25,199 bases of DNA, from positions 1 to 25,199 of IMG/VR virus record IMGVR_UViG_3300008266_000955. One strand, 5' to 3'. The notes beneath the pieces were generated by a model. It was not told where the DNA came from and did not search any database. It was given only the letters and a program-made list of their open reading frames with translations. Within the stretch, counting starts at the first letter, position 1. Each line of letters begins with the position of its first letter. Position numbers and translations under genes: made by a program. Below, piece after piece: positions 899 through 16,881 of this stretch. Source of the DNA: a virus.

Positions 899-979
899 AT
901 GTGTTGGTTGCGAGAAAACAGAATATCGCTCGAAATTGCTTCTGCTGATTTTAAATTAAATGAAAATGAAAAAGATTAA
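899..979 (+). CDS. Possible micro-ORF (26 aa) upstream of the radical SAM gene
   Basis: An ATG at 899 opens 26 codons ending at TAA 977-979, overlapping the start of the next gene. The same frame is open back to 839, and its codon usage resembles real genes here (RYSKEWQLENSLKMCWLREN). The true product might therefore be about 44 residues with a non-canonical start. No Shine-Dalgarno is seen and nothing is recognisable, so this may be a decayed gene. Confidence 0.25.
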   Translation: MCWLRENRISLEIASADFKLNENEKD

Positions 980-1367
980 TAGAAAATCAATGCTTATTAG
1001 AGAAAGTAATAGAAGTACTGACTTTATATCACCTAGCTTTGGTCACGGCTGTTTATTCAACTGTACTTACTGTGTAACTCCAGATACACTAATAACTACT
1101 CCATTTGGTCTAAAAATGGCTGAAAAAATTCAGGAAGGAGATTCAATAATTTCTTTTTCCCTGGATACCTTGCAACCTGAAATAGATTTAGTGACTGCAA
1201 TTGGTGAACGGGATACTGATGAACTTTATGTAATTGAAGTAGATGAACAAAATGTGACTGTAACTGGAGAGCATCCTTTTTATACAAAAAATAGAGGGTG
1301 GGTAAAAGCAGAACATCTAACTGAAGATGATGAATTACTTTGTGATATTCATGATTTAATCCAATAA
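960..1367 (+). CDS. Radical SAM (spore photoproduct lyase-like) N-extein fused to N-terminal split intein
   Basis: Residues 1-37 are the start of a radical SAM enzyme, reaching the first two cysteines of the CxxxCxxC iron-sulfur motif (GCLFNCTY, C31 and C35). Residues 38-135 are an N-terminal intein half. It starts with Cys38 (CVTPDTLI, block A), contains the block B TxxH signature (TGEHPFYT) and ends in a Hint-type tail before TAA. The enzyme half continues in the separate gene at 1916-2782, so active protein requires two translated fragments to associate and splice in trans. The start at 960 is followed by a second in-frame ATG at 966. The SPL assignment comes mainly from the C-terminal half; the split-intein reading is supported by both halves. 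Confidence 0.88.
   Translation: MKMKKINRKSMLIRESNRSTDFISPSFGHGCLFNCTYCVTPDTLITTPFGLKMAEKIQEGDSIISFSLDTLQPEIDLVTAIGERDTDELYVIEVDEQNVTVTGEHPFYTKNRGWVKAEHLTEDDELLCDIHDLIQ
1071..1364 (+). mobile_element. N-terminal half of a naturally split intein
   Basis: This codes for 98 residues beginning with the nucleophilic Cys (TGT 1071-1073). Block A CVTPDTLITTPFG and block B TGEHPFYTKNRGW are clear, followed by EHLTEDDELL, typical of the Hint fold. It is inserted after the second cysteine pair member of the radical SAM cluster motif. A stop codon ends it before any endonuclease domain; the endonuclease is a separate antisense gene. Confidence 0.88.
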
Positions 1368-1926
1368 TGTTGTTTTTATCGTAAACATCTATATTAGCTA
1401 TTTTACAAAACCATCTAGGTATAATATGATGATAATCTATATTATTTTCTATACCTGTAAGAGAACATTTGGTAATATTTAAATCTTTTTTTAATTTATA
1501 CCAATTATTAGTTTGATATTCTGTAGAAATAGCATTACCATGAAGATAATTAGGATTACCAATACCTTTATATTTTTCAGATATTAATTTACCTTGATTT
1601 TTTTTACCAAAACCTTGTATAGTACAATCTTTACAATATCCAGCTCTAGCTTTAGATTTTGGAGATTGTTCACCACAATGTTTACAAATTACCCATTTAG
1701 TGTGTATAGAAGGTATAGTTTTATCTATAATAAAAAGAGTACCTTCAAATTTTTTCATAGTTCTAAAGTCTTTTTTATAAAAAGAACCAGCTTCTTGAAA
1801 AGTACGAAATACAGGTTTAGAAGCTAAATTAAACATATCAGTATAAATTTTTTCACAAATATTATTGCAATAGGTTGTATACTTTTTTGTAATTTTACCA
1901 CAACATAAACAATTTATGGAACTCAT
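1096..1926 (-). CDS. HNH homing endonuclease encoded antisense between intein halves
   Basis: The 276-residue open frame starts at ATG 1926-1924. Near the N-terminus there are paired cysteine clusters (CLCCG..YCNNIC, then CKHCG..YCKDC) that look like small zinc fingers. The HNH core follows: CSLTG, YHHIIPRWFC, then NNIIGLNHEYHKVIHH, supplying the His-His, Asn and His ligands. The start overlaps the C-intein start by 11 nt. The last HNH helix and everything after it is antisense to the N-intein; the frame stays open to 1096, but the final 75 residues (Leu/His/Gln-rich) may simply be read-through. HNH enzymes nick or cut DNA at homing sites; here it would mobilise the split-intein locus. The HNH call is firm, the true C-terminus uncertain. 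Confidence 0.8.
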   Translation of the reverse strand: MSSINCLCCGKITKKYTTYCNNICEKIYTDMFNLASKPVFRTFQEAGSFYKKDFRTMKKFEGTLFIIDKTIPSIHTKWVICKHCGEQSPKSKARAGYCKDCTIQGFGKKNQGKLISEKYKGIGNPNYLHGNAISTEYQTNNWYKLKKDLNITKCSLTGIENNIDYHHIIPRWFCKIANIDVYDKNNIIGLNHEYHKVIHHLQLDVLLLPTLYFLYKKDALQLQSHFVHLLQLHKVHQYPVHQLQSLNLFQVARYPGKKKLLNLLPEFFQPFLDQME

Positions 1927-2035
1927 ATATAAAAAAATTAAAAGTATTACAAAGATACAACAAAAAACTAAGGTTGTTAACTTTTCTGTAAAAACTAATG
2001 AAAATTACTTTGCTAATGGAATACTGACTCATAAT
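1916..2035 (+). mobile_element. C-terminal half of the split intein
   Basis: Forty residues from the ATG to the terminal HN dipeptide. The penultimate His, terminal Asn and following Cys are the canonical residues for Asn cyclisation and C-terminal cleavage. The size is in the range of naturally split C-inteins (about 35-45 residues). Confidence 0.87.
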
Positions 2036-2782
2036 TGTTACATGAAACGTCATAAACCTCAAGGATTAGATATTGCTAAAAATACAGGAGATATTTTAAC
2101 AGCTATTAATAATCATTCAATGTTTACTATTGTAGACAAACCTAATCAAACTCATAGCTCATTGATAACGTATGATATAAGTTGTAATGAGGATTTTGCT
2201 TTACATTTAAAATATCATAATTGGAAATATATTTTTGACTTTTTTAAAGATAGTCCTAAAGCTATGGGTTCGTTTGCAACTAAATATGTAAATGTAAATT
2301 TATTAAATTATAATCCTGAAAATAAAATAAGAATTAGATTTAGTTTAATGCCACAAAAATATTCTGATTTGTTAGAACCTAATACATCTAAAATAATTGA
2401 TAGAATTAAAGCTATTGATGCATTTATAGATTCAGGTTATGATGTTCATATTAATTTTTCTCCTGTAATTGTAACTGATAATTGGTTAGAAGAATACAAA
2501 GATTTATTTCAAATGGTTAATGATTATGTAGATTACAAAGATATAGTTAAAAGTGAAGTTATATTTCTTACTCATAATAAAAATAAACATATTGATAATT
2601 TAAATAACAATGTAAAAGGTGAAGATTTGTTATGGAATCCTGAAATACAAGAAAATAAAACTTCTCAATATGGTGGTATAAATATACGTTACAAACATAA
2701 TCTAAAGTACCAATACATTGAAGAATTTAAAAAGATTCATAATGAAATAATTCCTTGGAATATAATAAGATATATATTTTAA
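1916..2782 (+). CDS. C-terminal split intein fused to radical SAM (spore photoproduct lyase-like) C-extein
   Basis: Residues 1-40 are a C-intein (block F-like KVVNFSVKTNENYF, ending GILTHN) with Cys41 as the +1 nucleophile. Cys41 is also the third cysteine of the radical SAM CxxxCxxC motif (CYMKRHKPQG). The remaining ~247 residues match the spore photoproduct lyase/COG1533 pattern: TK at FATKYVN, IRFSLMP, LEPNTSKIIDRIKAID, then GYDVHINFSPVI. After splicing the enzyme would be about 285 residues. SPL-type enzymes use S-adenosylmethionine and a [4Fe-4S] cluster to reverse thymine photoproducts; the phage substrate is unknown. The ATG at 1916 lies inside the antisense HNH start region. Confidence 0.87.
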   Translation: MELIYKKIKSITKIQQKTKVVNFSVKTNENYFANGILTHNCYMKRHKPQGLDIAKNTGDILTAINNHSMFTIVDKPNQTHSSLITYDISCNEDFALHLKYHNWKYIFDFFKDSPKAMGSFATKYVNVNLLNYNPENKIRIRFSLMPQKYSDLLEPNTSKIIDRIKAIDAFIDSGYDVHINFSPVIVTDNWLEEYKDLFQMVNDYVDYKDIVKSEVIFLTHNKNKHIDNLNNNVKGEDLLWNPEIQENKTSQYGGINIRYKHNLKYQYIEEFKKIHNEIIPWNIIRYIF

Positions 2783-2931
2783 AACATTTAAAAAAGTACC
2801 ACGATGCTTCCCATAAGAACAGCTCACTTTGCTGTGGTCTTACCTCCACGTAAACGAATAGCCCAAGGCATAAGTTATGGTGGATTACCAAACCTCTCCT
2901 TAATGGACGCATTAAGTGAAGTTTGGGAAAT

Positions 2932-2999
2932 AGTCAGGTGGCGTAAGGTAACGCCCCATCATAGTAGATGGGAGATGCAGCTCAGACCTGTCCTGACTA
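2932..2999 (+). ncRNA. tRNA-like module 1 (degenerate)
   Basis: A 7-bp acceptor-like stem AGTCAGG/CCTGACT (2932-2938 with 2992-2998) encloses a D-arm-like GCG TAAGGTAA CGC. Next comes a 6-bp hairpin at the anticodon position (2955-2960 with 2967-2972) and a weak 4-bp T-arm whose loop lacks the TTCRA consensus. The anticodon loop has the wrong size, so this is probably not a working tRNA. It may be a tRNA relic or a domain of the surrounding structured RNA. Confidence 0.4.
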
Positions 3000-3055
3000 C
3001 AATCTGGAATCATAACGGTCGGGCGGTTATGACGAATGGAGGGTAGCCCGAACAT

Positions 3056-3179
3056 AGTCAGGTGGCGGAATGGTAGACGCTAAGTAAATGGGGCGAGAAG
3101 AAGTTGCTGGTAAAACCGATAAAATACATTCCCAAGTTTTGCAACACTATTCATACAGGTTCGAATCCTGTCCTGACAA
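3056..3179 (+). tRNA. tRNA-Leu-like gene with an expanded anticodon region, or tRNA-like RNA domain
   Basis: The 5' part GTCAGGTGGCGGAATGG followed by TAGACGC closely matches the 5' third of bacterial tRNA-Leu. The 3' part has a canonical T-arm (ACAGG TTCGAAT CCTGT, 3155-3171) and CCTGAC pairing with GTCAGG. Between D-arm and T-arm lie about 73 nt instead of the roughly 30 expected, with GTTGC/GCAAC and AAATGGG/CCCA..TTT pairings but no clean 7-nt anticodon loop, so no anticodon can be read. No CCA is encoded. It may hold an insertion or be a tRNA-derived domain of the larger RNA. Confidence in tRNA ancestry is good; in function, low. Confidence 0.45.
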
Positions 3180-3400
3180 CTAAGCTTTCTGTATGGTGTG
3201 TAGAGAGATTCTACAACTCAAAGTCTTGTAAATTTGGCATGAAACAGTAAGAAAGCACTTTCCATTAGTGATGATACGTAAACATAAAATGTTAAGTAAC
3301 TCTTGTAGCAAAAGACGTTATTATGGAGTGGTCACAGAAGGACTGTTGGAAAGTCATTATTGGTCTACGTAATTAGACTTTAAGGGTAAAATGTGTGTGT

Positions 3401-3431
3401 AAACTCTAGGTATTACGGCCTAGAGTTTTTT
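3401..3431 (+). terminator. Strong intrinsic terminator ending the structured RNA region
   Basis: AAACTCTAGG (3401-3410) pairs with CCTAGAGTTT (3419-3428) over an 8-nt loop, followed by a run of six T. It sits 14 nt upstream of the polymerase ATG and would separate the RNA transcript from the replication operon. Confidence 0.85.
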
Positions 3432-3444
3432 AAATTTAAAAATT

Positions 3445-11402: not shown

Positions 11403-12707
11403 ATGAAAGCATTAATAACTGGAATTACAGAAGGAGAATCTAGAGGTGCATCTGCAACTTTAATATATAGAATATTTGATAAATATAAAGATTTTGATAC
11501 TCATATAAGTATTATAGATGAATTAACTGATAGTAATTGGGTAATAGATAAAAGAGATATTATATTTATAGAAGATGAAATTCCTAATATAGAATATAAC
11601 TCTAAATGTTACATTTGTTCTGAAGAATACTGTAATGATGTTAGTGAAAAATTTTTACAAGATTTTACATTAAATTCTTATAACAAATTAGTAGGAAAAG
11701 AATACATTAGCGATGAAGATTTTTGCATTAAACATTTTAATATTGAAAAAGATAATATTTTTGATTGGAAAAAAACAATTAAAGATTTTTTTGGAGATAG
11801 AGTAGATATACAAAATGAATATTTTATAGTACATTTTCCAAAAAAACATGTAGAAAATAGTTCAGGAAGACAACATACTATTTATGATGTATATTTAAGA
11901 ATTACAATAAATTATTCAAATTCTTCTAGAATGTATTATGGACATTATTTTAATGAGTATTTTGATAAATATTTACAAAATTGTGATGCAAATCCTTGTT
12001 TTTTATTAACTAGTGGTACAAGAACTACAGCATCTAAAGAAGAACATATTTCTTCATATTGTTTTTCTCATTTTCAAAGAGGATTTGGTGAATGGAGAAA
12101 TACTTGTTTAGGCGAAGGATTGTTAAGAAAATATGGAAGTATTCCAATTTCTAATGAAGAACTTGCTGTAGGTTATTGTGTAGCTTTAGAAAATTATCTT
12201 TCTTGGGAATCTTTAGAAGGCGGACCTTATATTAAAATTAGTGATATTCGTTCTAATATTGAAAGAGAAAATTTAAATTCTTCTCTTTTTAGTTCAAGAA
12301 TGATGAAAAGTTTAATATCAAATAAATTTAACAATTTGATTTTAAATTTAGATGCAAATAAAGTTTACATAAACGAAAATGTTCTAGATGAAGTTAATTC
12401 TTTTTATGCCATTAATGGAAATTATATTTCTTTAGACAAATTAAATCAAAATGATAAAAATAACAGTAATCATAAAGAAATTGTTGGAAATAACTTTTTT
12501 ACTTTTAATGGAAAAGAAACTGGTAAATTAACAATTGATTATTCTTTAAATAAAAGTTCATCTGAAACAATTTTTTCTGGAGAATTAGATGTTTATAAAA
12601 TGTATTATCCTTCTTTAGAACAATCTTTAACAAATAAAATAAATAGTATTATAAATGACAAATCAAACAACTTCCTTGAAAAAAAACCCTTATTCAGAAT
12701 TAACTGA
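11403..12707 (+). CDS. Possible E2-like conjugating protein of the cassette (weak)
   Basis: I do not securely recognise this 434-residue protein. Its best clue is the segment SSYCFSHFQRGFG (218-229) followed by EWRNTCLGEGLLRK (230-243). A His (H223), then a CLGxG-type Cys (C235), recalls the HPH...CLG arrangement of prokaryotic E2-like proteins in operons with E1 and JAMM enzymes. A strand-rich region (YDVYLRITINYSNSS, about 161-175) precedes it, as expected for an E2/UBC or RWD core. The N-terminus has a Cys cluster (CYICSEEYC, 69-77). The C-terminal ~100 residues are Asn/Ser-rich. It lies between the Ubl and JAMM genes and overlaps the latter by 53 nt. The E2 role is inference from motif order and context. 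Confidence 0.45.
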   Translation: MKALITGITEGESRGASATLIYRIFDKYKDFDTHISIIDELTDSNWVIDKRDIIFIEDEIPNIEYNSKCYICSEEYCNDVSEKFLQDFTLNSYNKLVGKEYISDEDFCIKHFNIEKDNIFDWKKTIKDFFGDRVDIQNEYFIVHFPKKHVENSSGRQHTIYDVYLRITINYSNSSRMYYGHYFNEYFDKYLQNCDANPCFLLTSGTRTTASKEEHISSYCFSHFQRGFGEWRNTCLGEGLLRKYGSIPISNEELAVGYCVALENYLSWESLEGGPYIKISDIRSNIERENLNSSLFSSRMMKSLISNKFNNLILNLDANKVYINENVLDEVNSFYAINGNYISLDKLNQNDKNNSNHKEIVGNNFFTFNGKETGKLTIDYSLNKSSSETIFSGELDVYKMYYPSLEQSLTNKINSIINDKSNNFLEKKPLFRIN

Positions 12708-12996
12708 GTTTTCTAAAAAGAAGGGTAAATTAATATTGAGTCAAACTGTAATTGACCAAATTAAATATTTATGTTCTAAAATGCCATTAGTAGAATGGTC
12801 AGGTGTATTATACCACACTAGTGAAGGTGATTTACAAAATCCAGAACAATTTACATGTAAAGCTGAATATATATTGCTATTAGATAAAGGCACTTCAGGT
12901 TATACAGAATATGATTTTTCTTCTCCTTCTTTTACAGAAGCTTTGATGGAAAAACCAGAATTTATGGAATGGTCTATGAGCCATTGTCACTCGCAT
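12655..12996 (+). CDS. JAMM/JAB metalloprotease, exon 1
   Basis: This encodes residues 1-114, to be joined to 14127-14966. The exon includes the catalytic Glu region LVEWSGVLYH (E47) and ends MSHCHSH with H112 and H114. It breaks off exactly inside the zinc motif. Read without splicing, the frame runs only to a stop at 13026 and lacks the Ser and Asp ligands. Joining gives H-S-H-NNMSVFF-S-A-T-D, a perfect HxHx7SxxD. JAMM proteins are zinc isopeptidases that remove or process ubiquitin-like proteins. The start ATG at 12655 lies 53 nt inside the previous gene in another frame; no later ATG fits. Confidence 0.85.
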
Positions 12997-14126
12997 TCGA
13001 GAAATTGTGGTGCAGCTACAAAGTGATTTGTAGTAAAAAATAGAGGATGAATTGCTGGAACGATGACAAAGTAATCCAATCAGCAGCCAAGCTATAGTTA
13101 CAACTATAGAAGGTTCAACGACTACCTGAGCAGTATAGTCTGCTTAATAACAGGAAGTAGCTAATAGTAGTGTATTAGTGAAAAAGCGTCCTCCAACTTA
13201 ACATGTCCGTTAAGTTGATGATATAGTCTGTTCGTAGTTAATTCTTTGAAGAAAAACATTATGTTTTCTTTTTAAGAAAAAAGTTAAGTTATCGTAACAA
13301 GAATAGAAATTATAAAAATCTTTTTTATTGCATATATCTAAAATATAATAATTACTTTTATTGGTAATTTTAAATTTTTCAAGTTTAAGCTCTTCGGCAA
13401 TACCTTTTAAAAAAAGATATGTTCCGCAAATGTTTATACCGTATGTTCTATAAAATTCATTTTTTACTCTTTTATCTTTATGGGCATAAACATGACCATC
13501 GCCATCAAAATATCCTAATATTACAGCTTTTCTAAACTGTTTAGGTATTATTGGTAAAAAATTTTCAAGAGTAAAAGTTTTATTTCTATTAATACCAAGT
13601 GCAATTAAATTTCTACAAAGAGTTTGATTACCTAATGTTATTGATGACCTATTATAAGTTTTTTTAGTTCTTTTATCATAAGGTGTAGAATTTAATATTT
13701 TAGTTTCAAATCCAATTTCGGATTTAATAAAATTTAAAAAATCAACATCTTTGGTATTAACAACAATAGTTAGATTATATAATTTTTTTATTTTATCAAA
13801 ACCGATACAACCATCAGCAGCTATATACCCCAATATATAAGCTTTTGAATATGTATCAATTTTTGAAAAATAATCAACATTACCTTGTGAAGGTCTTTTA
13901 TTATTATAACCGCAATCTCTTTTAAGAATATAAGTTATAGTAGGATAAGGTTTTTGCATAATTTCAGCAATTTTTAAAACAGGAGTTTTGTTTAAATACA
14001 ATTCTTTGATTTTTTCAATTTGTTCTGATGATAATCTAGTTTTCATGTTTTTTCTTTTGTTATAACACAAAGGTAAGAATAAAACTTATAATAACAAATT
14101 TTCTTAATGTTTGCTACGAGTAAACG
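12997..14126 (+). ncRNA. Group I intron in the JAMM gene (with antisense homing endonuclease)
   Basis: A 1130-nt intron. The 5' site follows the U of CAT; GCAU of the exon pairs with GUGC at 13010-13013 in the intron, giving a U-G pair at the splice site. Core elements: P2 CTACAAA/TTTGTAG; P3 GAGGATG with GTCCTC; Q-like AATCAGCAGCCAAGC; R-like GTTCAACGACTAC; P7.1-like AGCAG/CTGCT; P8 CAACTTAAC/GTTAAGTTG; S-like GATATAGTC. It ends with G14126. Only that 3' site restores frame and motif: G14118 and G14120 give immediate stops. P7.1-like helices suggest subgroup IA. The endonuclease lies between S and the 3' end, on the opposite strand. Confidence 0.9.
13210..14046 (-). CDS. LAGLIDADG homing endonuclease, antisense within intron 1
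   Basis: The 278-residue protein has two LAGLIDADG helices: AYILGYIAADG (about 69-79) and AVILGYFDGDG (about 178-188), so it is a monomeric double-motif enzyme that cuts intron-less alleles. The N-terminal ~45 residues (RLSSEQIEKIKELYLN then KIAEIMQKPYPTITYIL) form a resolvase-like helix-turn-helix. I chose ATG 14046, preceded by an A-rich leader; a TTG at 14070 would add 8 residues. The gene runs opposite to its host intron, and its last codons and TAA lie in the P7/P8 segment of the ribozyme core, so both functions share bases. It needs its own promoter on the minus strand. Confidence 0.87.
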   Translation of the reverse strand: MKTRLSSEQIEKIKELYLNKTPVLKIAEIMQKPYPTITYILKRDCGYNNKRPSQGNVDYFSKIDTYSKAYILGYIAADGCIGFDKIKKLYNLTIVVNTKDVDFLNFIKSEIGFETKILNSTPYDKRTKKTYNRSSITLGNQTLCRNLIALGINRNKTFTLENFLPIIPKQFRKAVILGYFDGDGHVYAHKDKRVKNEFYRTYGINICGTYLFLKGIAEELKLEKFKITNKSNYYILDICNKKDFYNFYSCYDNLTFFLKRKHNVFLQRINYEQTISST

Positions 14127-14966
14127 AACAATATGAGCGTATTTTTTAGCGCGACTGACAATGAAGAACTTACAGATAATGCTCCTAATTACAACTACTA
14201 CCTTTCGTTAATTGTAAATAACAAAAATGAATATTGCGCTAGAATTGCATTCATTGGTGAAATTGAAGGTAGGACTATAAAATTTAAAGATAGACACGGA
14301 GTAGAGCAAGCAATAACTTCAGCAAATAAACAAGTTACATTTTATTACGAAATGGAAATATTTGCTGAAAGTTCTAATTTAATTGATGATTTCTTTGTTA
14401 AGCAGTATGAAAAAGTAATTGCAGCTAAACCAGTACAAACTTTTCCGCAATTTGAAAATAGTTATACAAATTATAACGTTACTAATTATGAAAATTATGG
14501 TATAGGTTATAATAAAAATTATGCAAAAAATAATTACAAACAAGGTAAATTATTTGATGACAAAAGTACTGAAAAGATTGAAGATAAATTAACTTGGGAT
14601 TCTCAAGCTGTAAACTTTATTAAAAGATTGATTGATGTAAATTATACTATGGAAAACATAGCATTTTATTTAAACTACAATCAAGATTATTCTTCTCCTT
14701 TACATAATTATTTAGATGATTTGATTCCTAAAAACAAAGGACATTTTAAAAATAATAAAGAAGTTAAAGAATTTATTGAAAATAGAGTAGCTAATGCAGA
14801 TGAAGTATTTGAATATTTTTCAATTACTTGTGATGAGTATGATAATACAAGTGATTTAAATGATGTATGGATAGATTCTATTAATTTTCTAAAAGCAAGT
14901 AGTTTTAAAAATCATCCAACATCAAAATTAATTATAGAAGAAATGGACAAATGGGTATGGAAATAA
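14127..14966 (+). CDS. JAMM/JAB metalloprotease, exon 2
   Basis: This encodes residues 115-393 after splicing. It begins NNMSVFFSATDNEEL, supplying S122 and D125 of the zinc motif, then continues the JAB fold (APNYNYYLSLIVNN, YCARIAFIGEI). An in-frame ATG at 14133 is tempting as an independent start but would leave the motif without its histidines. Beyond the ~150-residue JAB domain is a Tyr/Asn-rich linker (about residues 218-260) and a helical C-terminal domain (NFIKRLIDVNYTMENIAFYL onward) that I do not recognise. It may bind the E1 or the Ubl. The stop overlaps the E1 start by 16 nt. Confidence 0.85.
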   Translation, partial: NNMSVFFSATDNEELTDNAPNYNYYLSLIVNNKNEYCARIAFIGEIEGRTIKFKDRHGVEQAITSANKQVTFYYEMEIFAESSNLIDDFFVKQYEKVIAAKPVQTFPQFENSYTNYNVTNYENYGIGYNKNYAKNNYKQGKLFDDKSTEKIEDKLTWDSQAVNFIKRLIDVNYTMENIAFYLNYNQDYSSPLHNYLDDLIPKNKGHFKNNKEVKEFIENRVANADEVFEYFSITCDEYDNTSDLNDVWIDSINFLKASSFKNHPTSKLIIEEMDKWVWK

Positions 14967-15142
14967 AAAAAATTAAACAAAGTACAGTAAGATTTTCAGA
15001 AGCTTACTTTTATAAACCAAATGTAGAAGTACTAGTATTAGGATTAGGGGGTATCGGCTCATGGCTGACCCTCAATCTTGCTAGATTAGAATGTAATTTA
15101 CATTTATACGATTATGATTTAATTGATGAAGTAAATTTAGCT
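14951..15142 (+). CDS. E1/ThiF-like adenylyltransferase, exon 1
   Basis: Residues 1-64, joined to 16390-16881. It contains the Rossmann nucleotide-binding loop VLGLGGIGSW (29-38) and the second strand with acidic ribose contacts LYDYDLIDEVNLA (52-64), the DxDxxxxxNL motif of E1/MoeB/ThiF enzymes. Unspliced, the frame stops at 15163, just after. E1-like enzymes adenylate the C-terminus of a ubiquitin-like protein and usually pass it to a Cys. The start at 14951 overlaps the JAMM gene end; a second ATG at 14957 is possible. Confidence 0.88.
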
Positions 15143-16389
15143 AGGAATATTCTATTATATTAATTATTTTTGTATATACAAAAAATAATATAATGGATAA
15201 ATACTCAGGAGAATTTAAAACAATTGACACACAAGAAAAAGCTTATGTTTTAGGCTTGTTTTACGCAGATGGATATATTTATAAAAGAAAATATAGTTAT
15301 TTTTCAGGAATTACTTTACATTTAAAAGATGAATATTTAATAGATAAATTATGTGAAATTTTTTCTTTTTTTCAAAAAACTTTTGACAAAAGTAAACCTT
15401 CAACAATACATTTGAGATGTAATGTAAAAGAATTTATTTTAGATTTAAAAGCAAACGGAATGCATGAAAGAAAATCTTTTGAAAACAAAGAGAATTTACA
15501 TGTACCAAATATTGATAAATCTTTAATTAATCATTTTATTAGAGGATTTTTTGATGGAGATGGTAGTGTTTATTTTAGTAAAACTGCATCTATAAATTCT
15601 AAATATTGTACTTTTACAGGAGTATGTTTTTCTTTTTTAAAAGAAATTCAGGAAATTTTAAAAACAAATAATATTAATTTTAGATTTACAATTAATAAAC
15701 TTTCTAAAAAAGAATCTTACATTTTTGGAAGAAAAATTAATAATCCACAAGATGTTGGAATATTAACTTTATCTTTAAGAAAAGAAATTGAATTTTTTTC
15801 AAATTTTTTATATAAAAATAGTAATATACATCTTTATAGAAAATATGAAATAATGAATTCTTGGACAGAAACTTTATCTGAAAGATTTATATGTAGAATA
15901 TGTAATTCTAAAAATACAATATTTGTAGGAAAAAATAAATATAAATGTAAAAATTGTAATAAAATAATTCCAATAATAGGTAATATTTTTGTTAAAAAAA
16001 CAAGCAAGCCTTGTAAACATTGTAATTCACTAAATACCGTAGGAAACGGTAAAACTAAAAGTAGAACTACAAATGAAATAATATCTGAAAAATTTTTGTG
16101 TAGAAATTGTAATAAAAACTCCAGTTATTTAATGACTGGTCTTAATAACAGTAATGTTATTAATGGAGAGGATGAATTGACTGGAAAGCTAAGGGATGAA
16201 AGACTCCTATGCCAATCAGCAGCCAAGCCGTCAGAGACGGAAGGTTCAGAGACTACCTGAGTAATAGCGATATTACTTAATAACAGGAAGTAGTTATAAT
16301 ATATATTGAAGTTATAATGAAAAAGTGTCCTCCATCCTTATAGGATGAAGATATAGTCCATGCCGCATAGAAATATGGGATAAACATTG
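15143..16389 (+). ncRNA. Group I intron in the E1 gene (with LAGLIDADG gene)
   Basis: A 1247-nt intron starting after GCT (15142) and ending with G16389; the following GGT CAA ATG restores NLAGQMY, the NLxxQ motif. A long A/T hairpin (about 15154-15192) precedes the endonuclease ORF. The core lies at the 3' end: GAGAGGATG (P3) with GTGTCCTCC; CAATCAGCAGCCAAGC; GGTTCAGAGACTACCTGAG (R/P7); AATAACAGGAAGTAG; P8 CATCC/GGATG; S GAAGATATAGTCC. Core sequences are nearly the same as intron 1 (for example AATCAGCAGCCAAGC and AATAACAGGAAGTAG), so the two are related. I could not place P1 confidently. Confidence 0.88.
15193..16260 (+). CDS. LAGLIDADG homing endonuclease with zinc ribbons, in intron 2
   Basis: The 355-residue protein carries two LAGLIDADG helices, YVLGLFYADGY (about 18-28) and FIRGFFDGDGSV (about 115-126). 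It would make the double-strand break that drives homing into intron-less E1 alleles. The C-terminal third has two Cys4 ribbons (CRIC..CKNC, then CKHC..CRNC) likely used for DNA binding. It starts right after an A/T hairpin in the intron and runs sense to the host gene. Its last ~35 codons overlap the ribozyme core (P3 to P7), with the TGA inside the R/P7 region; those residues are probably a by-product of the overlap. Confidence 0.88.
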   Translation: MDKYSGEFKTIDTQEKAYVLGLFYADGYIYKRKYSYFSGITLHLKDEYLIDKLCEIFSFFQKTFDKSKPSTIHLRCNVKEFILDLKANGMHERKSFENKENLHVPNIDKSLINHFIRGFFDGDGSVYFSKTASINSKYCTFTGVCFSFLKEIQEILKTNNINFRFTINKLSKKESYIFGRKINNPQDVGILTLSLRKEIEFFSNFLYKNSNIHLYRKYEIMNSWTETLSERFICRICNSKNTIFVGKNKYKCKNCNKIIPIIGNIFVKKTSKPCKHCNSLNTVGNGKTKSRTTNEIISEKFLCRNCNKNSSYLMTGLNNSNVINGEDELTGKLRDERLLCQSAAKPSETEGSETT

Positions 16390-16881
16390 GGTCAAATGTA
16401 TGCTAATACTGATATTGGATTAAGAAAACTTGATAGTATTAATAGTTTAGTTAATTTATTATGTGATAAACCTAATATAATTTCTTTAAATGAAAAATAT
16501 ACTAATGAAAGTTTGACTGGTCCAATAGTATTTTCTTGTTTTGACAATATGGCTGCAAGAAAATTAGCTTTTGATAAATGGAAAGCTGAAGACGATAGAG
16601 AACTTTTTATTGATGGAAGAATGGCACTTTCAACAGGAGAAGTTTATTGTGTAACAAAAGGAAAAGAAAAAGAATACGAAAGAACTTTATTTGATGATTC
16701 TGAAGTTGAAGATGCTGCTTGTAGTATGAAAGCAACTACTTTTAGTGGTATGACTATCGCAAGTATAATGACAGCATTATTTTGTAATTATGTAGGTACA
16801 ACTTTAAATCCAGATTTACCAGTTAATTTATCTTTTAAAACAACTTATAATTTTCCGTTAATGATGTTTGAAAGTATATGA
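16390..16881 (+). CDS. E1/ThiF-like adenylyltransferase, exon 2
   Basis: Residues 65-227 after splicing. It starts GQMYANTDIGLRK, which completes the NLxxQ motif and the conserved DIGxxK (Q66, K76), then IVFSCFDNMAARKLAF (the (T)DN..xR motif; D116, N117, R121). Next is VEDAACSMKATTFSGMTIAS, whose Cys175 is the likely crossover-loop cysteine, as in related ThiF proteins of Ub-like operons. No CxxC zinc pairs are seen, so it is a short E1-like form. A TTG at 16387 gives an ORF-style start but is intronic. The stop TGA overlaps the next ATG (ATGA). Confidence 0.88.
   Translation, partial: GQMYANTDIGLRKLDSINSLVNLLCDKPNIISLNEKYTNESLTGPIVFSCFDNMAARKLAFDKWKAEDDRELFIDGRMALSTGEVYCVTKGKEKEYERTLFDDSEVEDAACSMKATTFSGMTIASIMTALFCNYVGTTLNPDLPVNLSFKTTYNFPLMMFESI

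What the first reader, a model, noticed from the sequence alone, without database searches (positions are those of the whole stretch)
960..2782. Naturally split intein interrupting the [4Fe-4S] motif of a radical SAM enzyme, with an antisense HNH gene in between
N-intein (Cys1, TxxH) and C-intein (HN, Cys+1) are on separate ORFs. The extein junction lies inside CxxxCxxC, and the +1 Cys doubles as the third cluster ligand. Fractured genes with a free-standing endonuclease between split-intein halves are an established arrangement; here the endonuclease is HNH and runs in the opposite direction. The host is a spore-photoproduct-lyase-like protein. The enzyme can bind its cluster only after trans-splicing.
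Basis: partly seen in the sequence, partly recalled or inferred. Interest (0 to 1): 0.88.

Follow-up and report, generated by a model that had tools for sequence, protein, structure and literature searches.

The report
Split intein overprinted by antisense endonuclease
A phage DNA-repair-type enzyme gene is cut in two by a mobile split intein (a protein piece that removes itself and joins its neighbours), and the endonuclease gene thought to spread this element is written backwards across the same DNA that encodes the intein's first half, so one stretch of DNA is kept as two proteins at once.

Summary
ORF 960-1367 carries an N-extein and N-intein, and ORF 1916-2782 carries a C-intein and C-extein. 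Joined, the exteins match the spore-photoproduct-lyase family (TIGR03886, E 1e-90) with CxxxCxxC re-formed, the third Cys being the +1 residue.

It is not a one-off. About 38 IMG/VR contigs carry the same element (23 distinct at 97%), always at this site. It is 965 nt (968 in two), with no indels at a mean 82% identity. Many close relatives have the uninterrupted gene, the nearest 96% identical to the window's exteins, so the element is mobile.

It overlaps the N-half by 272 nt, and its HNH histidine (H195) and a further 81 residues are encoded on the back of the N-intein. Both readings are under purifying selection: fourfold-site divergence is 0.118 in the overlap, against 0.563 just before it and 0.405 in the HNH-only part, with no antisense stop in any element. 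The likely HNH promoter lies in the C-intein, and the two start codons share a CATG palindrome in 22 of 23.

This is a "fractured gene" split intein of a new, overprinted variant. Splicing and cleavage are inferred, not shown.

The parts
960..1367 (+). N-half ORF: N-extein (960-1070, residues 1-37, ending GCLFNCTY) plus N-intein (1071-1364, 98 residues from Cys1)
   Evidence: TIGR01445, PF07591; conserved in 23 elements
1071..1364 (+). N-intein: Cys1 (1071-1073) and block B TxxH (codons 1263-1274)
   Evidence: Cys1, T65 and H68 invariant in 23 of 23
1096..1926 (-). HNH endonuclease ORF, 276 aa (1926 to 1099, stop 1098-1096): N-terminal Cys clusters, HNH motif DYHH-IPR...NIIGLN-HK-H, helical tail
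   Evidence: PHROG HNH families up to 2.8e-5 over members; AF2 model with beta-beta-alpha and HNH nuclease matches; alignment of 23
1096..1367 (.). Dual-coding overlap: N-intein on +, HNH C-terminus (including H195 and H199) on -
   Evidence: fourfold divergence 0.118 versus 0.563 and 0.405; 0 of 21 elements with an antisense stop; no indels
1368..1915 (-). HNH-only coding stretch between the halves
   Evidence: fourfold divergence 0.405 over 1368-1850 in HNH frame; stops in all other frames
1916..2782 (+). C-half ORF: C-intein (1916-2035, 40 residues, ending LTHN) plus C-extein (2036-2779, from CYMKRH)
   Evidence: TIGR01443, TIGR03886; H39, N40 and Cys+1 invariant in 23
1916..1926 (.). Overlapping divergent starts of C-half (+1916) and HNH (-1926); in 22 of 23 elements the two ATGs share one CATG, the window being the exception
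1950..1981 (-). Candidate HNH promoter inside the C-intein coding sequence: TATCTTTG (1957-1950), with GTTAAC (1981-1976) upstream; 20 bases lie between TTA/TTG and TATCTTTG
   Evidence: TAnnTTTG at the same place in 20 of 23; K13 codon AAG in 22 of 23 although AAA:AAG is 271:24 in the window's genes; consensus from PMC7366714
1071..2035 (.). Whole mobile element (965 nt), Cys1 codon to last Asn codon; 1071 and 2036 are the junctions with the uninterrupted gene
   Evidence: empty-site alignment; insert length 965 or 968 in all elements

Best explanation
A mobile, naturally split class-1-type intein sits between the second and third cluster cysteines of a phage SPL-family radical SAM gene. The two halves are translated separately, associate, and trans-splice by Cys1, Asn and Cys+1 chemistry to give a 285-residue enzyme with an intact CxxxCxxC. 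The HNH endonuclease, transcribed from the opposite strand out of a promoter within the C-intein, cuts the uninterrupted gene in co-infecting phages and so spreads the 965-nt element. Its C-terminal third is encoded on the antisense strand of the N-intein, so the two proteins are mutually overprinted and constrain each other. Shown here: the anatomy, conserved catalytic residues, dual purifying selection, empty sites, and repeated gain/loss and transfer. Inferred: splicing, cleavage, promoter use.
For: Intein and SPL profiles. Nearest solved inteins are NrdJ-1, 1.5e-10, and gp41-1; nearest extein structure is SPL 4fhc, 5e-10. 23 distinct elements, 21 of exactly 965 nt at 72-96% identity. Catalytic residues invariant. 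Fourfold divergence: N-frame 0.118 (95% 0.055-0.185) in the overlap, 0.563 before it; HNH-only 0.405; the HNH frame in the overlap also low, 0.150; zero stops in both frames, 5-12 on average in the other frames. Resampling 20% of synonymous codons would put an antisense stop in 70% of elements. Exteins of split loci under purifying selection: C-extein fourfold 0.523 versus second position 0.196. Extein tree: at least 7 forced changes of state, 16 by parsimony; window nearest to an empty allele, 96%. HNH-only DNA more alike than C-extein DNA in 89% of pairs, e.g. L050/L061 0.96 versus 0.74. HNH fold with helices up to about residue 232 predicted at pLDDT 80-93.
Against: No splicing, cleavage or transcript data. 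HNH hits are weak by sequence (Pfam HNH_2 0.06 at best) and of modest Z (at most 5.0). The last about 30 residues of the HNH tail are modelled with low confidence. The -33 element of the promoter is a partial match. The SPL score is below the TIGR03886 equivalog cut-off, so the reaction of the enzyme is open.
Confidence: 0.85

Rival explanations
1. The split intein is real, but the antisense ORF over the N-intein is only an open frame left by A-ending codons; the endonuclease needs just the first about 20 overlapping codons and its tail is not selected.
For: The tail is rich in L, Q and H, as expected opposite A-rich wobble positions; its last about 30 residues are modelled with low confidence.
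Against: Fourfold sites are suppressed three- to five-fold across the overlap; no stop in 21 elements against most expected; the tail reads on in register and is still largely conserved in L224 although that HNH is only 57% identical to the window's; residues 206-232 form confident helices.
Confidence: 0.1
2. The insert is spliced at the RNA level (an intron inside an intein), so the intein is in fact continuous.
For: Phages of this kind carry other interrupted genes with endonuclease ORFs.
Against: No Rfam group I or II intron at any threshold; N and C ORFs each end or begin with conserved stop and start codons; the stretch between is HNH coding throughout with no room for a ribozyme core.
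Confidence: 0.03
3. A decayed element: the halves no longer splice, and the SPL gene is broken.
For: No direct demonstration of splicing.
Against: All splice residues invariant in 23; exteins intact and under purifying selection; element conserved to L224.
Confidence: 0.03

Closest known systems
Fractured genes with split inteins and free-standing endonucleases (Dassa et al. 2009, doi 10.1093/nar/gkp095; paper not held, known by title and from memory)
   Same: Enzyme gene in phage broken by a split intein at the usual endonuclease insertion site with an endonuclease gene in the gap; nearest solved inteins are NrdJ-1 and gp41-1, of that group from memory
   Different: The endonuclease is HNH, antisense, and overprinted on the N-intein with its probable promoter in the C-intein; host is an SPL-family radical SAM enzyme. 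Whether any published case is antisense or overlapping could not be checked.
Full-length inteins with an in-frame homing endonuclease domain
   Same: Same splicing residues and blocks; endonuclease at the same place in the Hint fold
   Different: Here the endonuclease is a separate protein on the other strand, which only a split intein permits
Antisense homing endonuclease genes in group I introns (e.g. Porphyra S1506, PMC2585584)
   Same: Endonuclease gene on the strand opposite to the self-splicing element
   Different: There in a peripheral loop of an RNA intron; here opposite a protein-coding, protein-splicing domain, with both frames conserved
Intein-containing Rv2578c-family radical SAM proteins (NCBIfam NF038136)
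   Same: Intein in a radical SAM protein; weak alignment over the motif and N-intein (2e-4)
   Different: Single continuous precursor, other host family; insertion site not compared in detail
Spore photoproduct lyase (4fhc)
   Same: CxxxCxxC, neighbouring tyrosines (CTYCY), and the Cys of ACTSD aligned with SCNED
   Different: Phage protein lacks about 62 N-terminal model positions; substrate unknown

Membership tests
Naturally split intein | Cys/Ser at position 1 and block B TxxH in an N-terminal intein domain | tested here: met
   TIGR01445 28.9 bits over cut-off 24.5; Cys1, T65, H68 invariant in 23
Naturally split intein | C-terminal block with penultimate His, Asn, and nucleophile at +1 | tested here: met
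   TIGR01443 20.9 bits over cut-off 15.6; H, N, C+1 invariant in 23
Naturally split intein | Two separate genes, no continuous frame | tested here: met
   Stops and different frames in all elements
Naturally split intein | Trans-splicing activity | not testable with these tools
   Needs co-expression
Fractured gene | Conserved enzyme broken by split intein with endonuclease gene in the gap, phage setting | tested here: met
   IMG/VR virus records
Fractured gene | Endonuclease of the Vsr-like (EDxHD) family reported for about half of the loci (from memory) | tested here: not met
   HNH instead; not a required feature
HNH endonuclease | beta-beta-alpha motif with conserved His and Asn | tested here: met
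   D164, H166, H167, N186, H195 and H199 invariant in 23; predicted strands 163-167 and 187-191 with helix 192-200
HNH endonuclease | Profile or fold match | tested here: inconclusive
   PHROG 2.8e-5 and 5e-5 for the best members, Pfam 0.06; structural matches nearly all HNH but Z at most 5.0
Homing element | Precise insertion, empty alleles in close relatives, history different from the host gene | tested here: met
Homing element | Endonuclease cuts the empty allele | not testable with these tools
   Needs protein
Spore photoproduct lyase family (PF20903) | Score above Pfam cut-off, CxxxCxxC | tested here: met
   79.9 bits versus 27
TIGR03886 equivalog | Score above 437.55 bits | tested here: not met
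   304.2 bits, N-terminal 62 positions absent
Bacteroidota-type promoter for HNH | TAnnTTTG at -7 and TTTG near -33 | tested here: inconclusive
   -7 in 20 of 23; -33 only partial (GTTGAC/GTTAAC, 20-base gap)

The most novel reading that the evidence does not exclude
Endonuclease and intein are locked together by overprinting. Deleting the endonuclease's catalytic end, or breaking its frame in the overlap, also destroys the N-intein and hence the host enzyme, so the usual decay of homing endonuclease genes is resisted. Divergent, mutually embedded promoters and coding regions would also time the endonuclease against the split enzyme. No element without an intact HNH frame, no HNH outside this element, and no continuous version were found.
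Probability: 0.4. Interest if true: 0.85.

Novelty: new variant of a known kind. Interest (0 to 1): 0.72.

Why it matters
Split inteins and homing endonucleases are known partners, but here one DNA stretch is kept as N-intein on one strand and endonuclease on the other. That is an architecture only a split intein allows. It offers a directly testable answer to how homing endonucleases escape decay, a reason why the intein stays split, an HNH homing family with no hit in the cultured species genomes searched, and 23 natural variants of a new split intein related to the NrdJ-1 and gp41-1 kind used in protein engineering.

Tried and rejected
Group I/II intron in the gap: no Rfam match. Cultured phage relatives of the extein or the locus: none. 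HNH relatives outside the element: none in IMG/VR, and none in bacterial and archaeal genomes, though peptide seeds limit reach. Continuous form of this intein: none; genome hits are distant Hint domains at or below 43% identity. First AF2 model of the HNH too weak to use (pLDDT 62.8). One search's HNH amino-acid column was computed in a wrong frame and is not used; one search replaces it. Searches used coordinates shifted by 3 nt; one search is the corrected version. Published antisense split-intein loci: no paper found in the held library, but the key 2009 paper is not held.

Full report
WHAT IS THERE. Window 960-1367(+) encodes 135 residues: a 37-residue extein ending GHGCLFNCTY, then CVTPDTLITTPFG...TGEHPFYTKNRGW...DELLCDIHDLIQ. 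Window 1916-2782(+) encodes MELIYKKIKSITKI...VVNFSVKTNENYFANGILTHN, then CYMKRHKP.... Intein profiles recognise both parts above their cut-offs. The two exteins joined give 285 residues that score 1.2e-90 with TIGR03886 and 2e-22 with Pfam SPL; the best solved relative is spore photoproduct lyase. Insertion is exactly before the third Cys of CxxxCxxC. The nearest solved inteins are NrdJ-1 and gp41-1, split inteins of the fractured-gene group (the grouping is from memory).

RELATIVES. A scan of IMG/VR with the C-half found 337 related loci, of which 80 were fetched; 29 of these carry the interrupted form (this count includes the window itself) and most of the rest are intein-less. Scans with the HNH, N-half and N-intein profiles found the same element again, about 38 contigs in all, and no other context for it. 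After removing near copies there are 23 elements. 21 are 965 nt from Cys1 codon to Asn codon and two (L132, L224) are 968. The HNH of L224 is only 53-57% identical to the window's, yet has the same layout. 965 is not a multiple of three, so the insert cannot be read through.

OVERPRINTING. The HNH frame runs from 1926 down to the stop at 1098-1096 and so lies across 272 nt of the N-half. H195 and H199 of the HNH motif are encoded inside the N-half ORF. Codon evidence (21 ungapped elements): fourfold sites of the N-intein differ in 0.563 of pairs in the 8 codons before the overlap but 0.118 (0.055-0.185) inside it. The same measure is 0.405 (0.354-0.452) for the HNH-only stretch, 0.523 for the C-extein and 0.647 for the N-extein. 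Read in the HNH frame the overlap is also constrained (0.150). Both frames are free of stops in all 21, while the other four frames average 5 to 12 stops. Resampling one fifth of the synonymous codons would put an antisense stop in 70% of elements and drop tail identity from 0.84 to 0.71. This is dual coding, not an accident of composition. With 23 sequences AlphaFold2 gives mean pLDDT 75.9, the HNH strands and helix, and helices up to residue 232 at 80-93, beyond which confidence falls. Structural matches are nearly all HNH nucleases, spanning residues 133-246, but weak (Z at most 5.0).

EXPRESSION. The C-half start and HNH start overlap; in 22 of 23 elements both ATGs lie in one CATG. On the minus strand, TATCTTTG lies at 1957-1950 within C-intein codons 12-14; TAnnTTTG is at that place in 20 of 23 elements. 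The lysine codon there is AAG in 22 of 23, although AAA outnumbers AAG 271 to 24 in the window's genes. Random synonymous recoding gives the motif nearby in 12% of cases. TAnnTTTG is the -7 consensus of Bacteroidota sigma-ABfr (PMC7366714). The -33 element is only partial, so this is a candidate promoter. A Bacteroidota host is an inference; the best DNA polymerase relative is Cellulophaga phage phi14:2 at 34%.

MOBILITY. Uninterrupted alleles match the flanks across the junction with no added or missing bases. The window's closest relatives are intein-less (96% identical exteins). On the extein tree presence/absence needs 16 changes, at least 7 forced by well supported branches. HNH-only DNA is more alike than C-extein DNA in 89% of pairs, with extremes such as 0.96 versus 0.74 (L050/L061), and a few the other way round (L009/L012 0.76 versus 0.92).

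FUNCTION, MOST LIKELY. Trans-splicing re-forms the enzyme; HNH cleavage of the empty gene drives spread; overprinting couples the fate of endonuclease and intein. Splicing, cleavage and transcription are inferred. The enzyme is a radical SAM protein of SPL type; the Cys equivalent to the SPL catalytic Cys is present in the window and in nearly all relatives, but not in L224 and L131. The family equivalog score is not reached, so the substrate is open.

NOVELTY. The kind is known (fractured genes with split inteins, Dassa et al. 2009, not held). Antisense endonuclease genes are known in group I introns (PMC2585584). I found no report of an endonuclease overprinted on an intein half, within a library that lacks most subscription papers. 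Hence: new variant of a known kind.

Noticed in passing
window 14951-15163 and 16387-16881, with 15193-16260: A ThiF-like gene is broken in two by a plus-strand LAGLIDADG ORF; no Rfam intron hit, so intron or other arrangement is unsettled.
   Followed up: partly
window 12655-13026 and 14133-14966, with 14070-13210 (-): A gene that looks JAB/MPN-like by eye (ends SHCHSHS, resumes FFSATDNEELTDN; no Pfam hit) is broken by an antisense LAGLIDADG ORF: a second antisense endonuclease in the same phage.
   Followed up: partly
window 2800-3440: Non-coding stretch with tRNA-like segments (about 3055-3180, ending in a tRNA-like T arm) and an odd ARAGORN call at 2932-3000; no Rfam hit.
   Followed up: no
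L077 2631-2741; L056 1105-1209: A second copy of an SPL N-terminus lies just upstream of the SPL gene: tandem paralogues or recombination remnants.
   Followed up: no
window 1851-1915: HNH third positions are unusually conserved just upstream of the C-half start (0.132-0.144 versus about 0.35-0.4), suggesting a plus-strand promoter or leader there; no TAnnTTTG found.
   Followed up: partly
L224 and L131 C-extein: These SPL-like proteins lack the Cys equivalent to the SPL catalytic Cys, hinting at a different reaction.
   Followed up: no
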